49,358 nt of DNA. It comes from Saprospiraceae bacterium (lineage in GTDB: Bacteria > Bacteroidota > Bacteroidia > Chitinophagales > Saprospiraceae). The translations under genes were made by a program, and so were the position numbers. The stretch's first letter is position 1; every line of letters begins with the position of its first letter. This document shows, piece by piece, positions 1,122-15,297 of this stretch. The notes under the pieces are model-generated. The model was not told the DNA's origin. It saw nothing but the letters and a program-made list of their open reading frames with translations, and did no database searches. Where the stretch lies: positions 1-49,358 of the forward strand of contig JABAQQ010000057.1 of NCBI GenBank assembly GCA_019187225.1, in the 5' to 3' direction.

Positions 1122-1646
1122 ATGCCTAATTTCGCCAAAATCCTACGTGCCGTGCGCCACCGCCACCGGCTGACCCAAGAACAAGCTGCCGAAATTTTTT
1201 CATTCTCGCTTTCCACCTTGCAAAGAATAGAATCGGGCCAGCGCGACCTGACCTATACCGAGTTGACGCGTATTGCCGAGTATTGCGGAAAAGAAATACA
1301 TGAAATTGTCGAATTTGAAAATGAGATGCCTCAACCTGATGCCCCTGAAAAAGAAGAATGTTTTGAAAAAATTATCTCAGCCCAAAACGAGCAAATCGCA
1401 TCTTTGCTCGAAGAAATCAAAAACCTTTGCGGCATAGTCAAAAAACTGATAAGTGGGGGGGGGGGAGAGATGACCCTTAAATGTTCGACGAACAGAACTA
1501 TTAACCCGGCAACCACCGACCATGAACATCTTCCTCACCCACGGCTATTTCCTCCGCGAAGACCCGAAAGAGCAGGCGATTATGAAACCATACCCGCCCC
1601 TGGGTTTGCTTTACCTGTCCGCCTGGCTGGACTTGCATGGCGTTGA
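1122..1646 (+). CDS. XRE-family HTH regulator, frame altered at a poly-G tract
   Basis: Residues 1-65 are a Cro/CI-type helix-turn-helix: an LRAVRHRHRLTQEQAAEIFS helix pair, the recognition segment LSTLQRIESGQRDLTYTELTRIAEYCG, then an acidic linker and a short coiled-coil-like helix (about 85-110). The frame then enters 11 G residues (1455-1465) and continues as a Pro/Arg-rich tail to 1646, overlapping the next gene by 125 bases. That tail looks like out-of-frame reading. With 10 G the protein would end at 116 residues, with 12 G at 119, both typical of compact XRE proteins. The DNA-binding domain is secure; the natural C-terminus is not. It lies just upstream of the radical SAM gene on the same strand. 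Confidence 0.75.
   Translation: MPNFAKILRAVRHRHRLTQEQAAEIFSFSLSTLQRIESGQRDLTYTELTRIAEYCGKEIHEIVEFENEMPQPDAPEKEECFEKIISAQNEQIASLLEEIKNLCGIVKKLISGGGGEMTLKCSTNRTINPATTDHEHLPHPRLFPPRRPERAGDYETIPAPGFALPVRLAGLAWR
1455..1465 (+). repeat. G11 homopolymer inside the regulator gene
   Basis: Eleven consecutive G follow the codons for LIS at the end of the predicted helix. The count sets the C-terminus: 11 gives the 174-residue read-through form, while 10 or 12 gives a stop within about 5-8 codons. Tracts of this length are prone to slippage in replication and also to sequencing error. Confidence 0.9.
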
Positions 1647-3006
1647 AAACGAGGTGTTCGACACGACTTTTTCCAAGAAAGAAGATTTGAAAAAATTCCT
1701 GCTCGAACACCGCCCGCGCATCGTGGCGCTCTACGTCAACCTGATGACGAAACTCAATGTCATCGAAATCATGCGTTTCATCCGCGCGCAGGAATCGCTG
1801 AACGACAGCCTCATCGTGCTCGGCGGCCCCGACGTGACGCACAACGCGGAAGATTATCTCAAATGCGGCGCGGATTTGATCGTGATCGGAGAGGGCGAGC
1901 AAACGATGCTGGAGATTGCGGATTGGGGATTTCGGATTTCGGATTTTGCCGATTTCGATTCCACGATCCACAATCCACGATCCGCAATCCACAATCCGCA
2001 ATCCGCAATCCACAACATTTCCGGCCTCGCTTTCCTGCTCCCCGACGGTTCGGTTTTCAAAACCGCACCCCGCGAAAAGATCCGCGACCTTGACCGTCTG
2101 CCTTTCCCAAATCGCCGGAAAATCAACCTGCAACTTTATCTGGACGCCTGGAAACGGACACATGGCCACAGCGCGGTGAGCATCAGCACCCAGCGCGGCT
2201 GCCCCTACACCTGTCGTTGGTGCAGCACTGCCGTGTATGGTCAGAGTTACCGCCGCCGCAGCCCGGTAAAAGTGGCGGATGAGATCGAATGGTTGCAGAA
2301 AAACTACGATTTCGACCTGATCTGGTTCGTGGACGACGTGTTCACGGTGAGTCATAAATGGCTCGGCGAGTTTCACGATGAATTGAAAGCCAGGGATTTA
2401 AAAATAAAATTCGAGTGCATTACCCGCGCCGACCGGCTGAACGAGGAAGTGATCCGGGTGTTGAAAGACTGTGGTTGTTTCCGGGTTTGGATCGGGGCGG
2501 AGAGCGGTTCGCAACGCATCATAGACGCGATGGACCGCCGGGTGGAGGTCGGGCAGGTGCGCGAAATGATAAAAGCGGCGCGGCGGGAAGGCATTCAGGC
2601 CGGTACTTTCATCATGCTCGGTTATCCGGGCGAGACGGAAGCCGATATCCGGGAAACAGTGAAACACCTCAAAGATTCCAACCCCGATCTTTTTACCATC
2701 ACGGTGGCTTACCCGATCAGGGGAACAGGATTGTACGAAGAAGTACAGGCGACTTCAGTCGCCTCCTTGCTCTGGGCTGAACGCAGCGACCGGGATATTG
2801 ATTTTCAACGTACTTACCCCCGCCGCTACTACGATTATGCCGTGCGATGGACGGTGAATGCTGTGCATTGGCACAAAGCGAAAGTTGCAGGCAAACAATT
2901 CAGTTTCAAGGGCTTGAAACTGTTGGGAAAAATAGGGGCGGCAAAAGCGGGAATGGCCTGGTGGCGGATCGCAGGCGAACTAACGTCGCTCCGGAGCGGT
3001 CGGTAG
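1522..3006 (+). CDS. B12-binding-domain radical SAM protein
   Basis: A 494-residue radical SAM protein with an N-terminal cobalamin-binding-like Rossmann domain. Residues 1-130 contain PPLGLLYLSAWL and LGGPDVTHNAEDYLKCGAD, characteristic of this class (BchE/P-methylase-like). The AdoMet cluster motif CPYTCRWC places Cys at 227, 231 and 234, followed by FVDDVF, IGAESGSQR and GYPGETEADI, as in B12-radical SAM TIM barrels. Substrate unknown; such enzymes often methylate or cyclise unactivated carbons. Residues about 132-164 are a low-complexity insertion (IHNPRSAIHNPQSAIHN) and residues 409-414 read through another palindrome, both probably repeat DNA. The first ATG is used; the start overlaps the upstream regulator tail. 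Confidence 0.88.
   Translation: MNIFLTHGYFLREDPKEQAIMKPYPPLGLLYLSAWLDLHGVENEVFDTTFSKKEDLKKFLLEHRPRIVALYVNLMTKLNVIEIMRFIRAQESLNDSLIVLGGPDVTHNAEDYLKCGADLIVIGEGEQTMLEIADWGFRISDFADFDSTIHNPRSAIHNPQSAIHNISGLAFLLPDGSVFKTAPREKIRDLDRLPFPNRRKINLQLYLDAWKRTHGHSAVSISTQRGCPYTCRWCSTAVYGQSYRRRSPVKVADEIEWLQKNYDFDLIWFVDDVFTVSHKWLGEFHDELKARDLKIKFECITRADRLNEEVIRVLKDCGCFRVWIGAESGSQRIIDAMDRRVEVGQVREMIKAARREGIQAGTFIMLGYPGETEADIRETVKHLKDSNPDLFTITVAYPIRGTGLYEEVQATSVASLLWAERSDRDIDFQRTYPRRYYDYAVRWTVNAVHWHKAKVAGKQFSFKGLKLLGKIGAAKAGMAWWRIAGELTSLRSGR
1912..2014 (+). repeat. Low-complexity inverted repeat inside the radical SAM gene
   Basis: The left arm (about 1914-1947) is built from GGATTTCGGATTT-like words, the right arm (about 1972-2011) from AATCCGCAATCCAC-like words. 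The arms are imperfect reverse complements and can fold into one hairpin. The reading frame stays open across it, adding about 33 residues between the B12-binding and radical SAM domains. Confidence 0.8.
2747..2764 (+). repeat. Short palindrome in coding sequence
   Basis: AGGCGACT-TC-AGTCGCCT, an 8-bp perfect stem with a 2-base loop, lies in the radical SAM gene and encodes part of QATSVAS near the end of the barrel. It looks like a small REP-type unit read through in frame. Confidence 0.55.
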
Positions 3007-9559: not shown

Positions 9560-10216
9560 TCACAAACGCACCTTCCGCAGTCCTCGGATATGTCCTTCCG
9601 GATTTTTTAACATCAGCATCGTATCGTTTAACAACACGATCTCTTCCCGATAGCCCTCATCTCCATAGATCAGCACCGGTTGATGTTTTTCAATCGTCAA
9701 ATAAAAAATGGGCGGACAAGAAAATATTACCGTGGTGCTGTCATCGAGCCGTTTGAATTGCTGAACAACGCTTTGAATAGATTTTTTTCTGACCAAAGCA
9801 AACTCCATGTTGAAGTTGGAAATGAATTGTGCGTCAGGATGGGTCGCGATTTTTACCCCGCTTTCCAAATCGAAATCATCCTCCCAATAGCCAGTAAGAA
9901 GAGCAGCGACCAATTTCATTTCTTTCGTGTTTGTATGCCTGAAAACGGAACATCCTATGAGTGCAGGCAATGCCAGCATAATTAACGCAAGTTGTGACCT
10001 CCAGCCCGGCGGGCTGTAATGTTGGTAGCAATTGTGTGACACCCCATTTTTACGAGCCCCGGAGGGGCGAAATACAGGTTTTTCATATAAATCTTCCATA
10101 TTCCGCCCCTCCGGGGCTTGTTGAAATGTAGGTTGCCATCTCCTACCAATATTATCGCCCCGCTGGGGCTGGAGGTCACAACCTACGTTAATTACTATCT
10201 TTTTGAAAAACATCAT
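9560..10216 (-). CDS. Putative lipoprotein with its signal peptide split by a repeat insertion
   Basis: From ATG 10216 the gene reads MMFFKKIVI, then about 70 codons of repeat-derived sequence (GCDLQPQRGD, APEGRNMEDLYEKP, PSGARKNG, SPPGWRSQ), then MLALPALIGCSVF and a 110-residue C-terminal domain (TGYWEDDFDLESGVKIATHPDAQF, IQSVVQQFKRLDDSTTVIFSC). Removing 9980-10189 (210 bases, exactly 70 codons) restores MMFFKKIVIMLALPALIGC, a textbook lipoprotein signal with LIGC lipobox. The present gene may use ATG 9979, leaving a very short signal, or may be inactive for export. An ATG at 10318 extends the frame further but has no signal-like features. The mature domain is not recognised. Confidence 0.65.
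   Translation of the reverse strand: MMFFKKIVINVGCDLQPQRGDNIGRRWQPTFQQAPEGRNMEDLYEKPVFRPSGARKNGVSHNCYQHYSPPGWRSQLALIMLALPALIGCSVFRHTNTKEMKLVAALLTGYWEDDFDLESGVKIATHPDAQFISNFNMEFALVRKKSIQSVVQQFKRLDDSTTVIFSCPPIFYLTIEKHQPVLIYGDEGYREEIVLLNDTMLMLKNPEGHIRGLRKVRL
9980..10193. mobile_element. Nonautonomous palindromic element inserted in the lipoprotein gene
   Basis: The ends 9980-10007 and 10166-10193 are inverted repeats matching at 26 of 28 positions (AATTAACG, then GTTGTGACCTCCAGCCC). AATT occurs at both edges and could be a 4-base target duplication. Inside, 10055-10069 and 10104-10118 are a perfect 15-bp inverted pair (AGCCCCGGAGGGGCG), each arm itself nearly palindromic. It encodes no transposase, so it would have to be mobilised in trans, as REP/BIME or MITE units are. 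Confidence 0.75.
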
Positions 10217-10397
10217 GCCTATTATTTCAAGTGCTTTCAAACCTAAAACAGAACAGGTAATTGTACAAATTCGATTTTCTTTTAAAACACTCAATCGATG
10301 AAAAACGGCATTTACCACTTAAAAAGGTTATTTCAGAAAATGGCTTGGAAACCACCCGCGTTCCAGGCCACTTTTGTTTCCAAAAAATCGCCGTGGC

Positions 10398-14479: not shown

Positions 14480-14604
14480 TTTTGAATTTGGAATTTTTGA
14501 TTGTTGATTTGTTGATTTATACGCTGTTTGAGCAAATAATCTTCTTCTTTTGCTACGCCAAATCACCAAATCACCACATCACCACATCAACCAATCACCG
14601 AAGA
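14480..14604 (+). repeat. Low-complexity inverted repeat between divergent genes
   Basis: The left part (about 14480-14518) repeats TTGATTTG/TTGTTGATT-like words, the right part (about 14562-14604) repeats AAATCACCACATCACC-like words. They are imperfect reverse complements and end directly at the GTG start of hemD. The promoters of the transporter and hemD must lie in or beside it. Confidence 0.65.
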
Positions 14605-15297
14605 GTGACCGCCTTCATCACCCGCGACCTTTCCGACTCCTCCGAATTCAAAAAAGTACTTTCCGCTGCGGGCTGGCAGGTGGAAGGCCGTTCGTTGGTC
14701 GAACTTTCTCCTATGCCTTTCCGGGAAATTCCCGCTGCCGACTGGGTATTTTTTTCGAGCAAAAACGCCGTGCGGTTTTTCTTCGAGTCATTAAAGTCAC
14801 GGGGCGACTCCGAGTCACCCCGTGACTTCATGCACACCCAATGGGCGGCCCTCGGTCCGGCGACCGCAAAAGTGCTGGCAGAATACGTAGGGAAAGTGGA
14901 TTTTACCGGCACAGGTGAGCCGGAGGGGACGGCGGATGCATTTCGACGCCTTCCGCAAAAAAAGGAATTGCGCATCCTCTTTCCCGCCGCCCGGCACTCC
15001 CGGCAAAGCGTGATGTCGCTCCTCACTCCCGATTTTCAGTGCCTTCACTTCCCGATCTACGACAACCGCCCTGTTGCCGATCCACCTTATTCGGACGCTG
15101 ATGTACTGGTTTTTACCAGCCCGATGAATGCGGAGGCGTATTTTTCAAAAAACAAGTTGGAAATACACCAGCGGGTGGTCGCCATCGGCGAGACGACGGC
15201 GGGGGCGCTGCGGGAATTGGGAATTTCAGATATTGCTACTGCGGAAGAAGCGACGGAGCGCGGTCTGGCAGAAGCAGTGCTGCGATTGCGAGGGTAA
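14605..15297 (+). CDS. hemD: Uroporphyrinogen-III synthase
   Basis: About 230 residues from GTG 14605. HemD cyclises hydroxymethylbilane to uroporphyrinogen III in tetrapyrrole (heme/B12) synthesis. Family features: FITRDLSDSSEFKKVLSAAG at the start, DWVFFSSKNAVRFFFESL, WAALGPATAKVL, LRILFPAARHSRQSVMSLL, DVLVFTSPMNAEAYF, VVAIGETTAGALRELG. The GTG is preferred because the upstream in-frame ATG (14482) would add 41 residues encoded by the low-complexity repeat. A palindrome at 14794-14828 is read in frame as KSRGDSESPRDF, in the loop between FESL and the ALGPATA motif, where relatives have a short linker. Heme supply fits a genome with a heme dehydrogenase. Confidence 0.88.
   Translation: MTAFITRDLSDSSEFKKVLSAAGWQVEGRSLVELSPMPFREIPAADWVFFSSKNAVRFFFESLKSRGDSESPRDFMHTQWAALGPATAKVLAEYVGKVDFTGTGEPEGTADAFRRLPQKKELRILFPAARHSRQSVMSLLTPDFQCLHFPIYDNRPVADPPYSDADVLVFTSPMNAEAYFSKNKLEIHQRVVAIGETTAGALRELGISDIATAEEATERGLAEAVLRLRG
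14794..14828 (+). repeat. 35-base palindrome inside hemD
   Basis: AAGTCACGGGGCGACTC (14794-14810) pairs with GAGTCACCCCGTGACTT (14812-14828) at 16 of 17 positions around a single C. It reads in frame as KSRGDSESPRDF. Confidence 0.85.

What the first reader, a model, noticed from the sequence alone, without database searches (positions are those of the whole stretch)
9980..10193. 210-bp in-frame element insertion splitting a lipoprotein signal peptide
Seen directly: the gene reads MMFFKKIVI, then a palindromic element, then MLALPALIGC. Removing exactly 210 bases (70 codons, using one copy of the flanking AATT) restores MMFFKKIVIMLALPALIGC, a perfect SpII signal. The element has 28-bp terminal inverted repeats (26 matches) and a 15-bp internal inverted pair, and stays open in frame. 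An apparently recent, footprint-clear insertion that adds 70 residues instead of breaking the frame suggests selection for readable insertions or a very young event.
Basis: partly seen in the sequence, partly recalled or inferred. Interest (0 to 1): 0.75.

Follow-up and report, generated by a model that had tools for sequence, protein, structure and literature searches.

The report
Hairpin mobile element inside lipoprotein gene
A 204-letter hairpin-shaped mobile element of the IS982-derived MITE kind appears to have jumped into the export signal of a gene found so far only in this bacterium; it stays in frame most likely by luck, and it carries a hairpin unit that a second, different mobile-element family in the same genome also carries.

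Summary
At 9979-10194 a 204-bp palindromic element with TAATTA on both sides interrupts a minus-strand ORF between MMFFKKIVI and MLALPALIGC, adding 210 bp (70 codons) in frame. It is best explained as an IS982-type MITE. Its 15-bp end, with up to a few mismatches, pairs around 16 other elements in this genome. With one letter changed it ends a 922-bp IS982-family element with an intact 273-aa transposase in a congener. Flank identity supports a 6-bp target duplication (15 of 30; five informative against 0.47 expected). No IS982 transposase was found in this assembly. The Y1/REP lead is not supported.

'Selection for readable insertions' is not supported: 13 of 17 copies have no open frame, 6 of 16 insert lengths are multiples of three, and no other copy lies inside a called gene. 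'Very young' is not supported: the interior has no close sibling. No empty site was found; the gene has no match in 41 other congeners.

Less ordinary: the four-hairpin interior with a GTAG-ending box also sits in a second MITE family with other ends and 8-bp duplications.

The parts
9560..10216 (-). host gene: orphan putative lipoprotein, interrupted after codon 9; ATGATG start at 10216, stop at 9560-9562
   Evidence: ORF; no Pfam family at E 0.001, one match far below cut-off at E 10; 0 of 41 other congeners; coding score 0.075, best of six frames here but at the low edge of known genes
10238..10245 (-). TAGGTTTG, fits the Bacteroidota -7 box TAnnTTTG (consensus recalled), upstream of the ATG
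   Evidence: match to a recalled consensus only
9979..9984 (.). left copy of target duplication TAATTA
9985..9999 (+). left terminal inverted repeat ACGCAAGTTGTGACC
10002..10016 (+). hairpin 1, CAGCCCGGCGGGCTG
   Evidence: alignment A1; stem changes
10017..10028 (+). box TAATGTTGGTAG (form in most other aligned elements AATAT[C]TTTGTAG)
   Evidence: GTAG invariant in 14 of 14 aligned elements
10056..10068 (+). hairpin 2, GCCCCGGAGGGGC
10105..10117 (+). hairpin 2', GCCCCTCCGGGGC
10143..10154 (+). mirror box CTACCAATATTA
10157..10169 (+). hairpin 1', GCCCCGCTGGGGC
10174..10188 (-). right terminal inverted repeat (ACGTAGGTTGTGACC on the minus strand)
10189..10194 (.). right copy of target duplication TAATTA

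Best explanation
The element is a non-autonomous, palindromic MITE (204 bp) with the ends of an IS982-family insertion sequence. An IS982-type DDE transposase acting in trans cut it at its ACGCAAGTTGTGACC ends and inserted it at a TAATTA site, duplicating those six bases. The site lay around codons 9-10 of an orphan lipoprotein gene, so 210 bp were added. By chance the length is a multiple of three and this frame has no stop, so the ORF stays open (252 codons counted from the GTG at 10318), but the charged start (MMFFKK) is now 70 residues away from the hydrophobic core and lipobox (MLALPALIGC). Most likely the product is no longer made or exported normally, because the signal is split and the message carries a very stable long hairpin. 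Shown: ends, flanks, family, a congener IS982 element with the same ends, open frame, fold. Inferred: movement in trans, the insertion event itself, loss of function.
For: The ends, with up to three mismatches (two right ends placed by hand), pair around 16 other elements in the genome. A congener (G004) carries a 922-bp element with ends ACTCAAGTTGTGACC and an intact 273-aa ORF scoring 148.6 bits against the IS982 model NF033520, cut-off 130. A decayed 922-bp copy and a 398-bp shorter relative lie in two more congeners. The exact end TTAACKCAAGTTGTGACC was found in 33 stretches of the GTDB collection: 11 are congener loci already seen, and of the other 22 several run into what reads by eye like an IS982-type gene. 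Six-base flank identity in 15 of 30 elements (permutation mean 6.1) and 5 identities at sites other than TAATTA (mean 0.47, p about 5e-5). Same four-hairpin architecture as 13 other elements from three genomes, with paired changes in stems. Gene side: MMFFKKIVI+MLALPALIGC, a TAGGTTTG box upstream, best coding score in this frame.
Against: No IS982 transposase found in this genome, by protein or by model, though the assembly is in 73 contigs. The window's flanks are the palindrome TAATTA, so by themselves they cannot tell a duplication from longer ends. Fifteen of 30 elements lack exact 6-bp flank identity, among them both 922-bp insertion sequences (5 of 6 each). No ortholog and no empty site. 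The coding score of the host ORF (0.075) is low, wrong frames of known genes reach 0.184, and my gene caller starts the ORF 65 bp downstream of the element, so it may be a weak or non-gene. The chance expectation for the GTDB pattern is about 15 exact matches (my estimate), so many of the 22 other stretches may be noise.
Confidence: 0.8

Rival explanations
1. The in-frame insertion is kept by selection: the 70 residues, or a new start inside the element (for example the GTG that gives MSHNCYQHYSPPGWRSQLALIMLALPALIGC), still give an exported lipoprotein with a longer N-terminus, as Rickettsia palindromic elements give readable inserts.
For: The frame is open through 70 codons and the end of the element next to MLALPALIGC reads ...RSQLALI, which lengthens the hydrophobic core.
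Against: No other copy lies inside a called gene; 13 of 17 copies have no open frame and insert lengths are multiples of three in 6 of 16, as chance would give; very stable RNA hairpin in the reading frame.
Confidence: 0.1
2. The ORF is not a gene; the element sits in intergenic DNA like its siblings and the open frame is coincidence.
For: Orphan; low coding score, 0.075 against a mean of 0.261 for windows of known genes, while wrong frames reach 0.184; the gene caller places the start downstream of the element; congener G046 has the two neighbouring genes about 95 bp apart with no such gene between.
Against: Joined flanks give a good lipoprotein signal by eye behind a TAnnTTTG box, and this frame scores best of six.
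Confidence: 0.2
3. The element is a REP/BIME moved by a Y1 (RAYT) transposase; the GTAG box is its tag.
For: The box ends in GTAG and the genome has three Y1_Tnp genes. An element with these ends lies 3.9 kb from one of them, and single loose ends lie 1.2-1.3 kb from two.
Against: GTAG is not at the foot of a hairpin but 8-9 nt behind one and about 24-27 nt before the next; defined ends and duplicated flanks; two of the three Y1 genes sit among hairpin arrays of another sequence and none is bordered by this unit.
Confidence: 0.05

Closest known systems
MITECca01 of Cardinium (PMC9769881; abstract and passages read)
   Same: MITE of about 240 bp with the ends of an IS982-family parent (ISCca4), in what I recall to be a Bacteroidota genus
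   Different: There intact copies of the parent are in the same genome; here none was found in the genome, and one set of ends encloses three unrelated interiors plus the window variant and minimal forms
Rickettsia palindromic elements (described in PMC10969869 and PMC3733652; passages read)
   Same: Palindromic repeat read in frame inside a host gene
   Different: Nearly half of the RPEs are described as inserted in ORFs; here 1 of 17 copies is in a probable gene and 13 of 17 have no open frame
GTAG-tagged REPs with RAYT (PMC3733652; passages read)
   Same: GC-rich hairpins with a GTAG nearby
   Different: No tag at the hairpin foot, duplicated target, no Y1 gene bordered by the unit
MITEs of Anabaena sp. 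90 (PMC3542288; passages read)
   Same: Mostly intergenic (132 of 147 there), a minority interrupt genes
   Different: Those had no similarity to the ends of IS in their genome; here an IS982 element with the same ends is known in a congener

Membership tests
IS982-derived MITE | Terminal inverted repeats shared with an IS982-family element | tested here: met
   14 of 15 bases of the left end equal the ends of the G004 element, whose transposase passes the NF033520 cut-off
IS982-derived MITE | Target-site duplication as made by the parent | tested here: inconclusive
   TAATTA on both sides of the window copy; 15 of 30 family members exact, 5 at informative sites, but both 922-bp IS copies 5 of 6
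IS982-derived MITE | Short, no transposase gene | tested here: met
   204 bp; the 252-aa ORF crossing it has no Pfam family
IS982-derived MITE | Multiple copies in the genome | tested here: met
   17 paired elements with these ends; but the window's own interior variant was found only once
IS982-derived MITE | Intact parent in the same genome | tested here: not met
   0 matches; I do not treat this as defining, since a MITE can outlive its parent or the parent can fall in assembly gaps
Rickettsia-type palindromic element | Readable in the host frame as a family property | tested here: not met
REP moved by RAYT | GTAG at the foot of the hairpin and bordering Y1 gene | tested here: not met
lipoprotein (signal peptidase II substrate) | Charged start, hydrophobic core, lipobox with cysteine | not testable with these tools
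   Sequence of the joined flanks fits by eye; no signal-peptide predictor was run

The most novel reading that the evidence does not exclude
The four-hairpin unit (hairpin, AATATTTGTAG-type box, spacer, hairpin, and mirror image) is a portable palindromic cargo taken up by MITEs of at least two unrelated transposase systems (IS982-type ends with 6-bp duplications; GTAAAAACTTAGGCA ends with 8-bp duplications), and it also spreads as a bare tandem array. Ends and interior would then evolve as separate, exchangeable parts, and the unit itself would have a selected function (stems change on both sides while pairing is kept).
Probability: 0.35. Interest if true: 0.55.

Novelty: new member of a known kind. 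Interest (0 to 1): 0.35.

Why it matters
The insertion itself adds one more IS982-type MITE and a likely case of gene damage that merely looks like a readable insertion. The wider value is that this genome offers a clear case for asking how MITE interiors arise: the same ends around unrelated interiors, and one interior unit under different ends. That makes exchange of interiors between mobile-element families testable by sequence comparison.

Tried and rejected
Empty site in relatives: the joined host protein was searched in 40 genomes (own included) and the part downstream of the element in the 42 genomes held of the genus (own included); only the own genome matched at E 0.01. Synteny: in G046, the only congener among the loci I held that keeps the 10374 gene beside the M14 peptidase, the two are about 95 bp apart with no host gene; tblastn of the host protein found nothing at E 1e-3 in 49 loci cut from the congeners. 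Y1/RAYT as mobiliser: rejected. IS66 transposase as partner of the second MITE family: PF03050 has 0 matches in the genome, so its partner stays unknown. Rfam: on the six stretches tried nothing reached a gathering score; the microRNA-type hits listed are, I think, what long hairpins give. Plasmid collection: no match; the phage collection was not searched. Promoter idea: in two congeners the box reads TATCTTTG, which fits the recalled TAnnTTTG consensus, but the forms in the own genome do not, so I dropped it. Literature: IS982 with target duplication found 0 papers; shared ends with different interiors gave nothing usable beyond PMC3542288. The features of IS66 and of IS982 ends that I mention are recalled.

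Rows left out of counts: one search used 30 elements; the C19 copy (interrupted by a transposase-like ORF), two unpaired ends (C22:127863, C25:76768), G016:C597 (right end replaced), L176 and three chance pairings were not counted. The alignment took 14 elements; the shortened C24 and C28 copies, C19, G006:C8, G016:C597, the minimal forms and the two other interior classes were left out. One search examined 23 of the 25 second-family elements. One search examined 22 of the 33 stretches. One search printed three loci in the wrong orientation; one search put this right.

Full report
What is there. The minus-strand ORF 9560-10318 reads ...MMFFKKIVI, 70 further codons, MLALPALIGC.... The extra stretch is a palindromic element of 204 bp (9985-10188) with TAATTA on both sides, so 210 bp are added. 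Its ends are ACGCAAGTTGTGACC and, on the other strand, ACGTAGGTTGTGACC; the repeat finder gives arms of 29 nt, 93% complementary, and an inner pair of 30 nt, 87%. As RNA it folds to -132.9 kcal/mol, z -15.3, with 0 of 200 shuffles as good.

The family in this genome. The genome has 7.18 Mb in 73 contigs. A contig of a congener (G017) has the length and match positions of a record titled Saprospirales UBA10441, so I take the organism to belong to that order. The 18-base end with up to one mismatch occurs 17 times forward and 11 times reverse, against 0 and 0 for the reversed control. Pairing the ends (up to three mismatches; the right ends of C19 and C44 placed by hand) gives 17 elements including the window copy, plus two unpaired ends. 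Nine have a four-hairpin interior with GCCCC/GGGGC stems (contigs C2, C14, C19, C20, C24, C27, C28, C44, C50; C24 and C28 are shortened and C19 is interrupted by a transposase-like ORF). Three (C15, C20, C22) have a second, unrelated interior, two (C11, C24) a third, and two are minimal (54 and 65 bp); the window copy is alone. Whole-element identity, where measured, is 0.77-0.99 within these three classes and 0.51-0.57 between them. The window interior is 0.49-0.63 identical to the 19 other elements of similar length, against 0.47 on average and 0.51 at most for 30 shuffled interiors. So one set of ends encloses different interiors.

Target duplication. I compared the six bases outside the ends in 30 elements: 16 from the own genome, 13 from five congeners, one from a GTDB record. 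They are identical on both sides in 15; shuffling right flanks among elements gives 6.1 on average. The informative cases are not TAATTA: TAGTTA, TATATA, TAAATA, TACTTA, TTATTA, five in all against a mean of 0.47, p about 5e-5. Against this, the other 15 are not exact, including both 922-bp insertion sequences with 5 of 6 each. A 6-bp duplication is well supported for the family but not proven for the window copy, where the hexamer is its own reverse complement.

The transposase. A congener (G004) has a 922-bp element with ends ACTCAAGTTGTGACC and an intact ORF of 273 aa. It scores 148.6 bits against the NCBIfam IS982 model (cut-off 130) and matches Pfam DDE_Tnp_1_3. G022 has a broken 922-bp copy and G017 a 398-bp shorter relative. 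The exact end (TTAACKCAAGTTGTGACC) occurs in 33 stretches of the GTDB collection, 11 of them the congener loci already seen. Of the other 22, some in records named Saprospiraceae, Dependentiae and Chloroflexi run into what reads like such a transposase gene, often near a contig end (by eye). About 15 exact matches are expected by chance for this pattern in a collection of that size (my estimate), so many of the 22 may be noise. In the own genome neither the protein nor the IS982 model finds a copy; 3 of 42 genomes of the genus pass the model's cut-off. The MITEs here may be stranded without a parent, or the parent may be lost in assembly gaps.

What it does to the gene. The gene has no Pfam family at E 0.001 and only one match far below cut-off at E 10. 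It has no match in 41 other congeners, so there is no empty site. In G046, the only congener among the loci I held with both neighbours together, they are about 95 bp apart with no such gene between. Its coding score is 0.075 per codon, best of the six frames; windows of known genes average 0.261 (minimum 0.071), their wrong frames average -0.225 but reach 0.184. Of four ORFs not used for training, three score 0.134-0.338 and one (225-725) -0.121. A TAGGTTTG box lies at 10238-10245, in front of ATGATG (the consensus is recalled). I think it is a real, perhaps acquired gene (about 0.8) whose signal peptide was split.

Is the open frame selected? Across flanks and element, 13 of 17 copies have no open frame in any of six; the window copy has one. 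Insert lengths are multiples of three in 6 of the 16 uninterrupted copies, as chance would give. In a simple gene-call test none of 17 IS982-type and 23 second-family elements lies inside a called gene. Ends of called ORFs overlap three elements (C50; second family at C13:8138 and C31:67823), and the caller starts the host gene 65 bp behind the window element. By the longest possible ORF, the C28 copy would lie five codons inside one of 196 aa, which looks to me like a chance frame. Eight of 17 IS982-type copies lie between convergent genes, against 3 of 21 intergenic gaps in the window; those at C2, C24:107069 and C27 sit at or within two codons of the end of a long ORF, as TAATTA contains TAA. 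So readable insertion is not a habit of this family.

The Y1 lead. Three Y1_Tnp genes are present. Two sit among hairpin arrays of their own sequence, and no hairpin-box unit was found in the 5-8.5 kb held around each. An IS982-type element lies 3.9 kb from the Y1 gene on C24; single ends with up to three mismatches lie 1.2-1.3 kb from the Y1 genes on C24 and C9; the third has none within 2 kb. I see no bordering relation.

Shared interior. Thirteen full-length elements from three genomes and the window element align in one architecture: end, hairpin 1, box AATAT[C]TTTGTAG, spacer, hairpin 2, centre, and the mirror image. Five-base stems are perfect in 14, 14, 12 and 13 of 14 for the four hairpins; hairpin 1 has four stem sequences. 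On the two outer hairpins 99.3% of cells pair against 89.1% in shuffles, and the covariation score is 0.230 against 0.075, with 0 of 500 shuffles as high for both, and near zero when the partner is slid. Weaker measures: pairs changed on both sides 4 against 2.2 (12 of 500 shuffles as high), further pair types 4 against 4.1 (no excess). The rows are related, so these numbers are not probabilities.

The same box behind a hairpin is found under other ends in this genome. A search for CGAAATATTTGTAG with one mismatch gives 52 forward and 42 reverse hits against 1 and 3 for the reversed control. Many belong to a family with ends GTAAAAACTTAGGCA around hairpin GGGGCAGCGCCCC. Of 25 such elements 19 have exact 8-bp flank repeats, two have 7 of 8 and four have 3 or fewer. 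GTAA ends with 8-bp duplications recall IS66 (from memory), but no IS66 transposase was found in the genome. There are also elements with GTAACTGTTCAGG and GTAACTGGTTAGCATA ends, one with other ends, and a bare tandem array of about 50-bp units at C2:62160-62670. Twelve of 13 box bases agree (GAAATATTTGTAG and GAAAGATTTGTAG) at the same place directly behind hairpin 1 in families with 6-bp and 8-bp duplications, which I judge unlikely by chance. Whether it reflects exchange of interiors, common descent with swapped ends, or convergence is open. In about 490 kb of congener loci the unit was seen only in G006 and G016, in loci picked for the IS982 ends, so I have no evidence of the second family outside this genome.

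Compared with the literature. An IS982-derived MITE is known in Cardinium (PMC9769881; abstract and passages). In-frame palindromic elements are known in Rickettsia (described in PMC10969869 and PMC3733652; passages). MITEs that break genes are known in Anabaena (PMC3542288; passages). My searches for IS982 MITEs, for MITEs in Saprospiraceae and for shared ends with different interiors listed no report of this family by title or abstract; the held library is partial and I saw only the top of the longer lists, so I do not claim it is unpublished. Verdict: a new member of a known kind, with one open observation, the shared hairpin unit, that deserves a survey.

Noticed in passing
window 14794-14828 (hemD, ORF 14482-15297 +): A 35-bp palindrome AAGTCACGGGGCGACTC-C-GAGTCACCCCGTGACTT is read in frame inside a HEM4-domain gene. 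The congener G009 has a different 35-bp palindrome with the same outer bases at the same place, so the stem seems kept while its letters change; one ortholog only.
   Followed up: partly
window 1914-2013 (radical SAM/B12 gene, ORF 1522-3006 +): A stretch of GATTGCGGATT-type inverted repeats is read in frame at about residue 131, near the end of the B12-binding domain and before the radical SAM domain; no ortholog in the congener loci I held.
   Followed up: partly
G000 contigs C1, C2, C4, C7, C10, C13, C19 and others (L200-L211, L233-L251, L253-L276): A MITE family with ends GTAAAAACTTAGGCA and exact 8-bp flank repeats in 19 of 25 elements; its transposase was not found.
   Followed up: partly
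G000:C2:62160-62670 (L207, L278): Tandem array of about 50-bp units, each a GGGGCAGCGCCCC-type hairpin followed by ATATTTGTAG; no terminal repeats seen.
   Followed up: no
G000:C19:58783-60379 (L078): A MITE of this family is itself interrupted by a transposase-like ORF (446 aa; not tested against a library) whose ends read CAATGTCGTTGACTTAAGG, inserted in an inner hairpin with about 10 repeated bases (by eye).
   Followed up: no
G000:C9:100612-101432 (L091) and G000:C3:164362-165700 (L092): Two Y1_Tnp genes sit among arrays of hairpins (CCCACCGA..TCGGTGGG and CCCCGGAA..TTCCGGGG), which look like their own REP families.
   Followed up: no
G016:C597 (L107) 306-560: An IS982-type element whose right end is replaced by a GTCATCCTTCGCTGCGCTCAGGATGACACC-type repeat, starting right after the shared GGT.
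   Followed up: no
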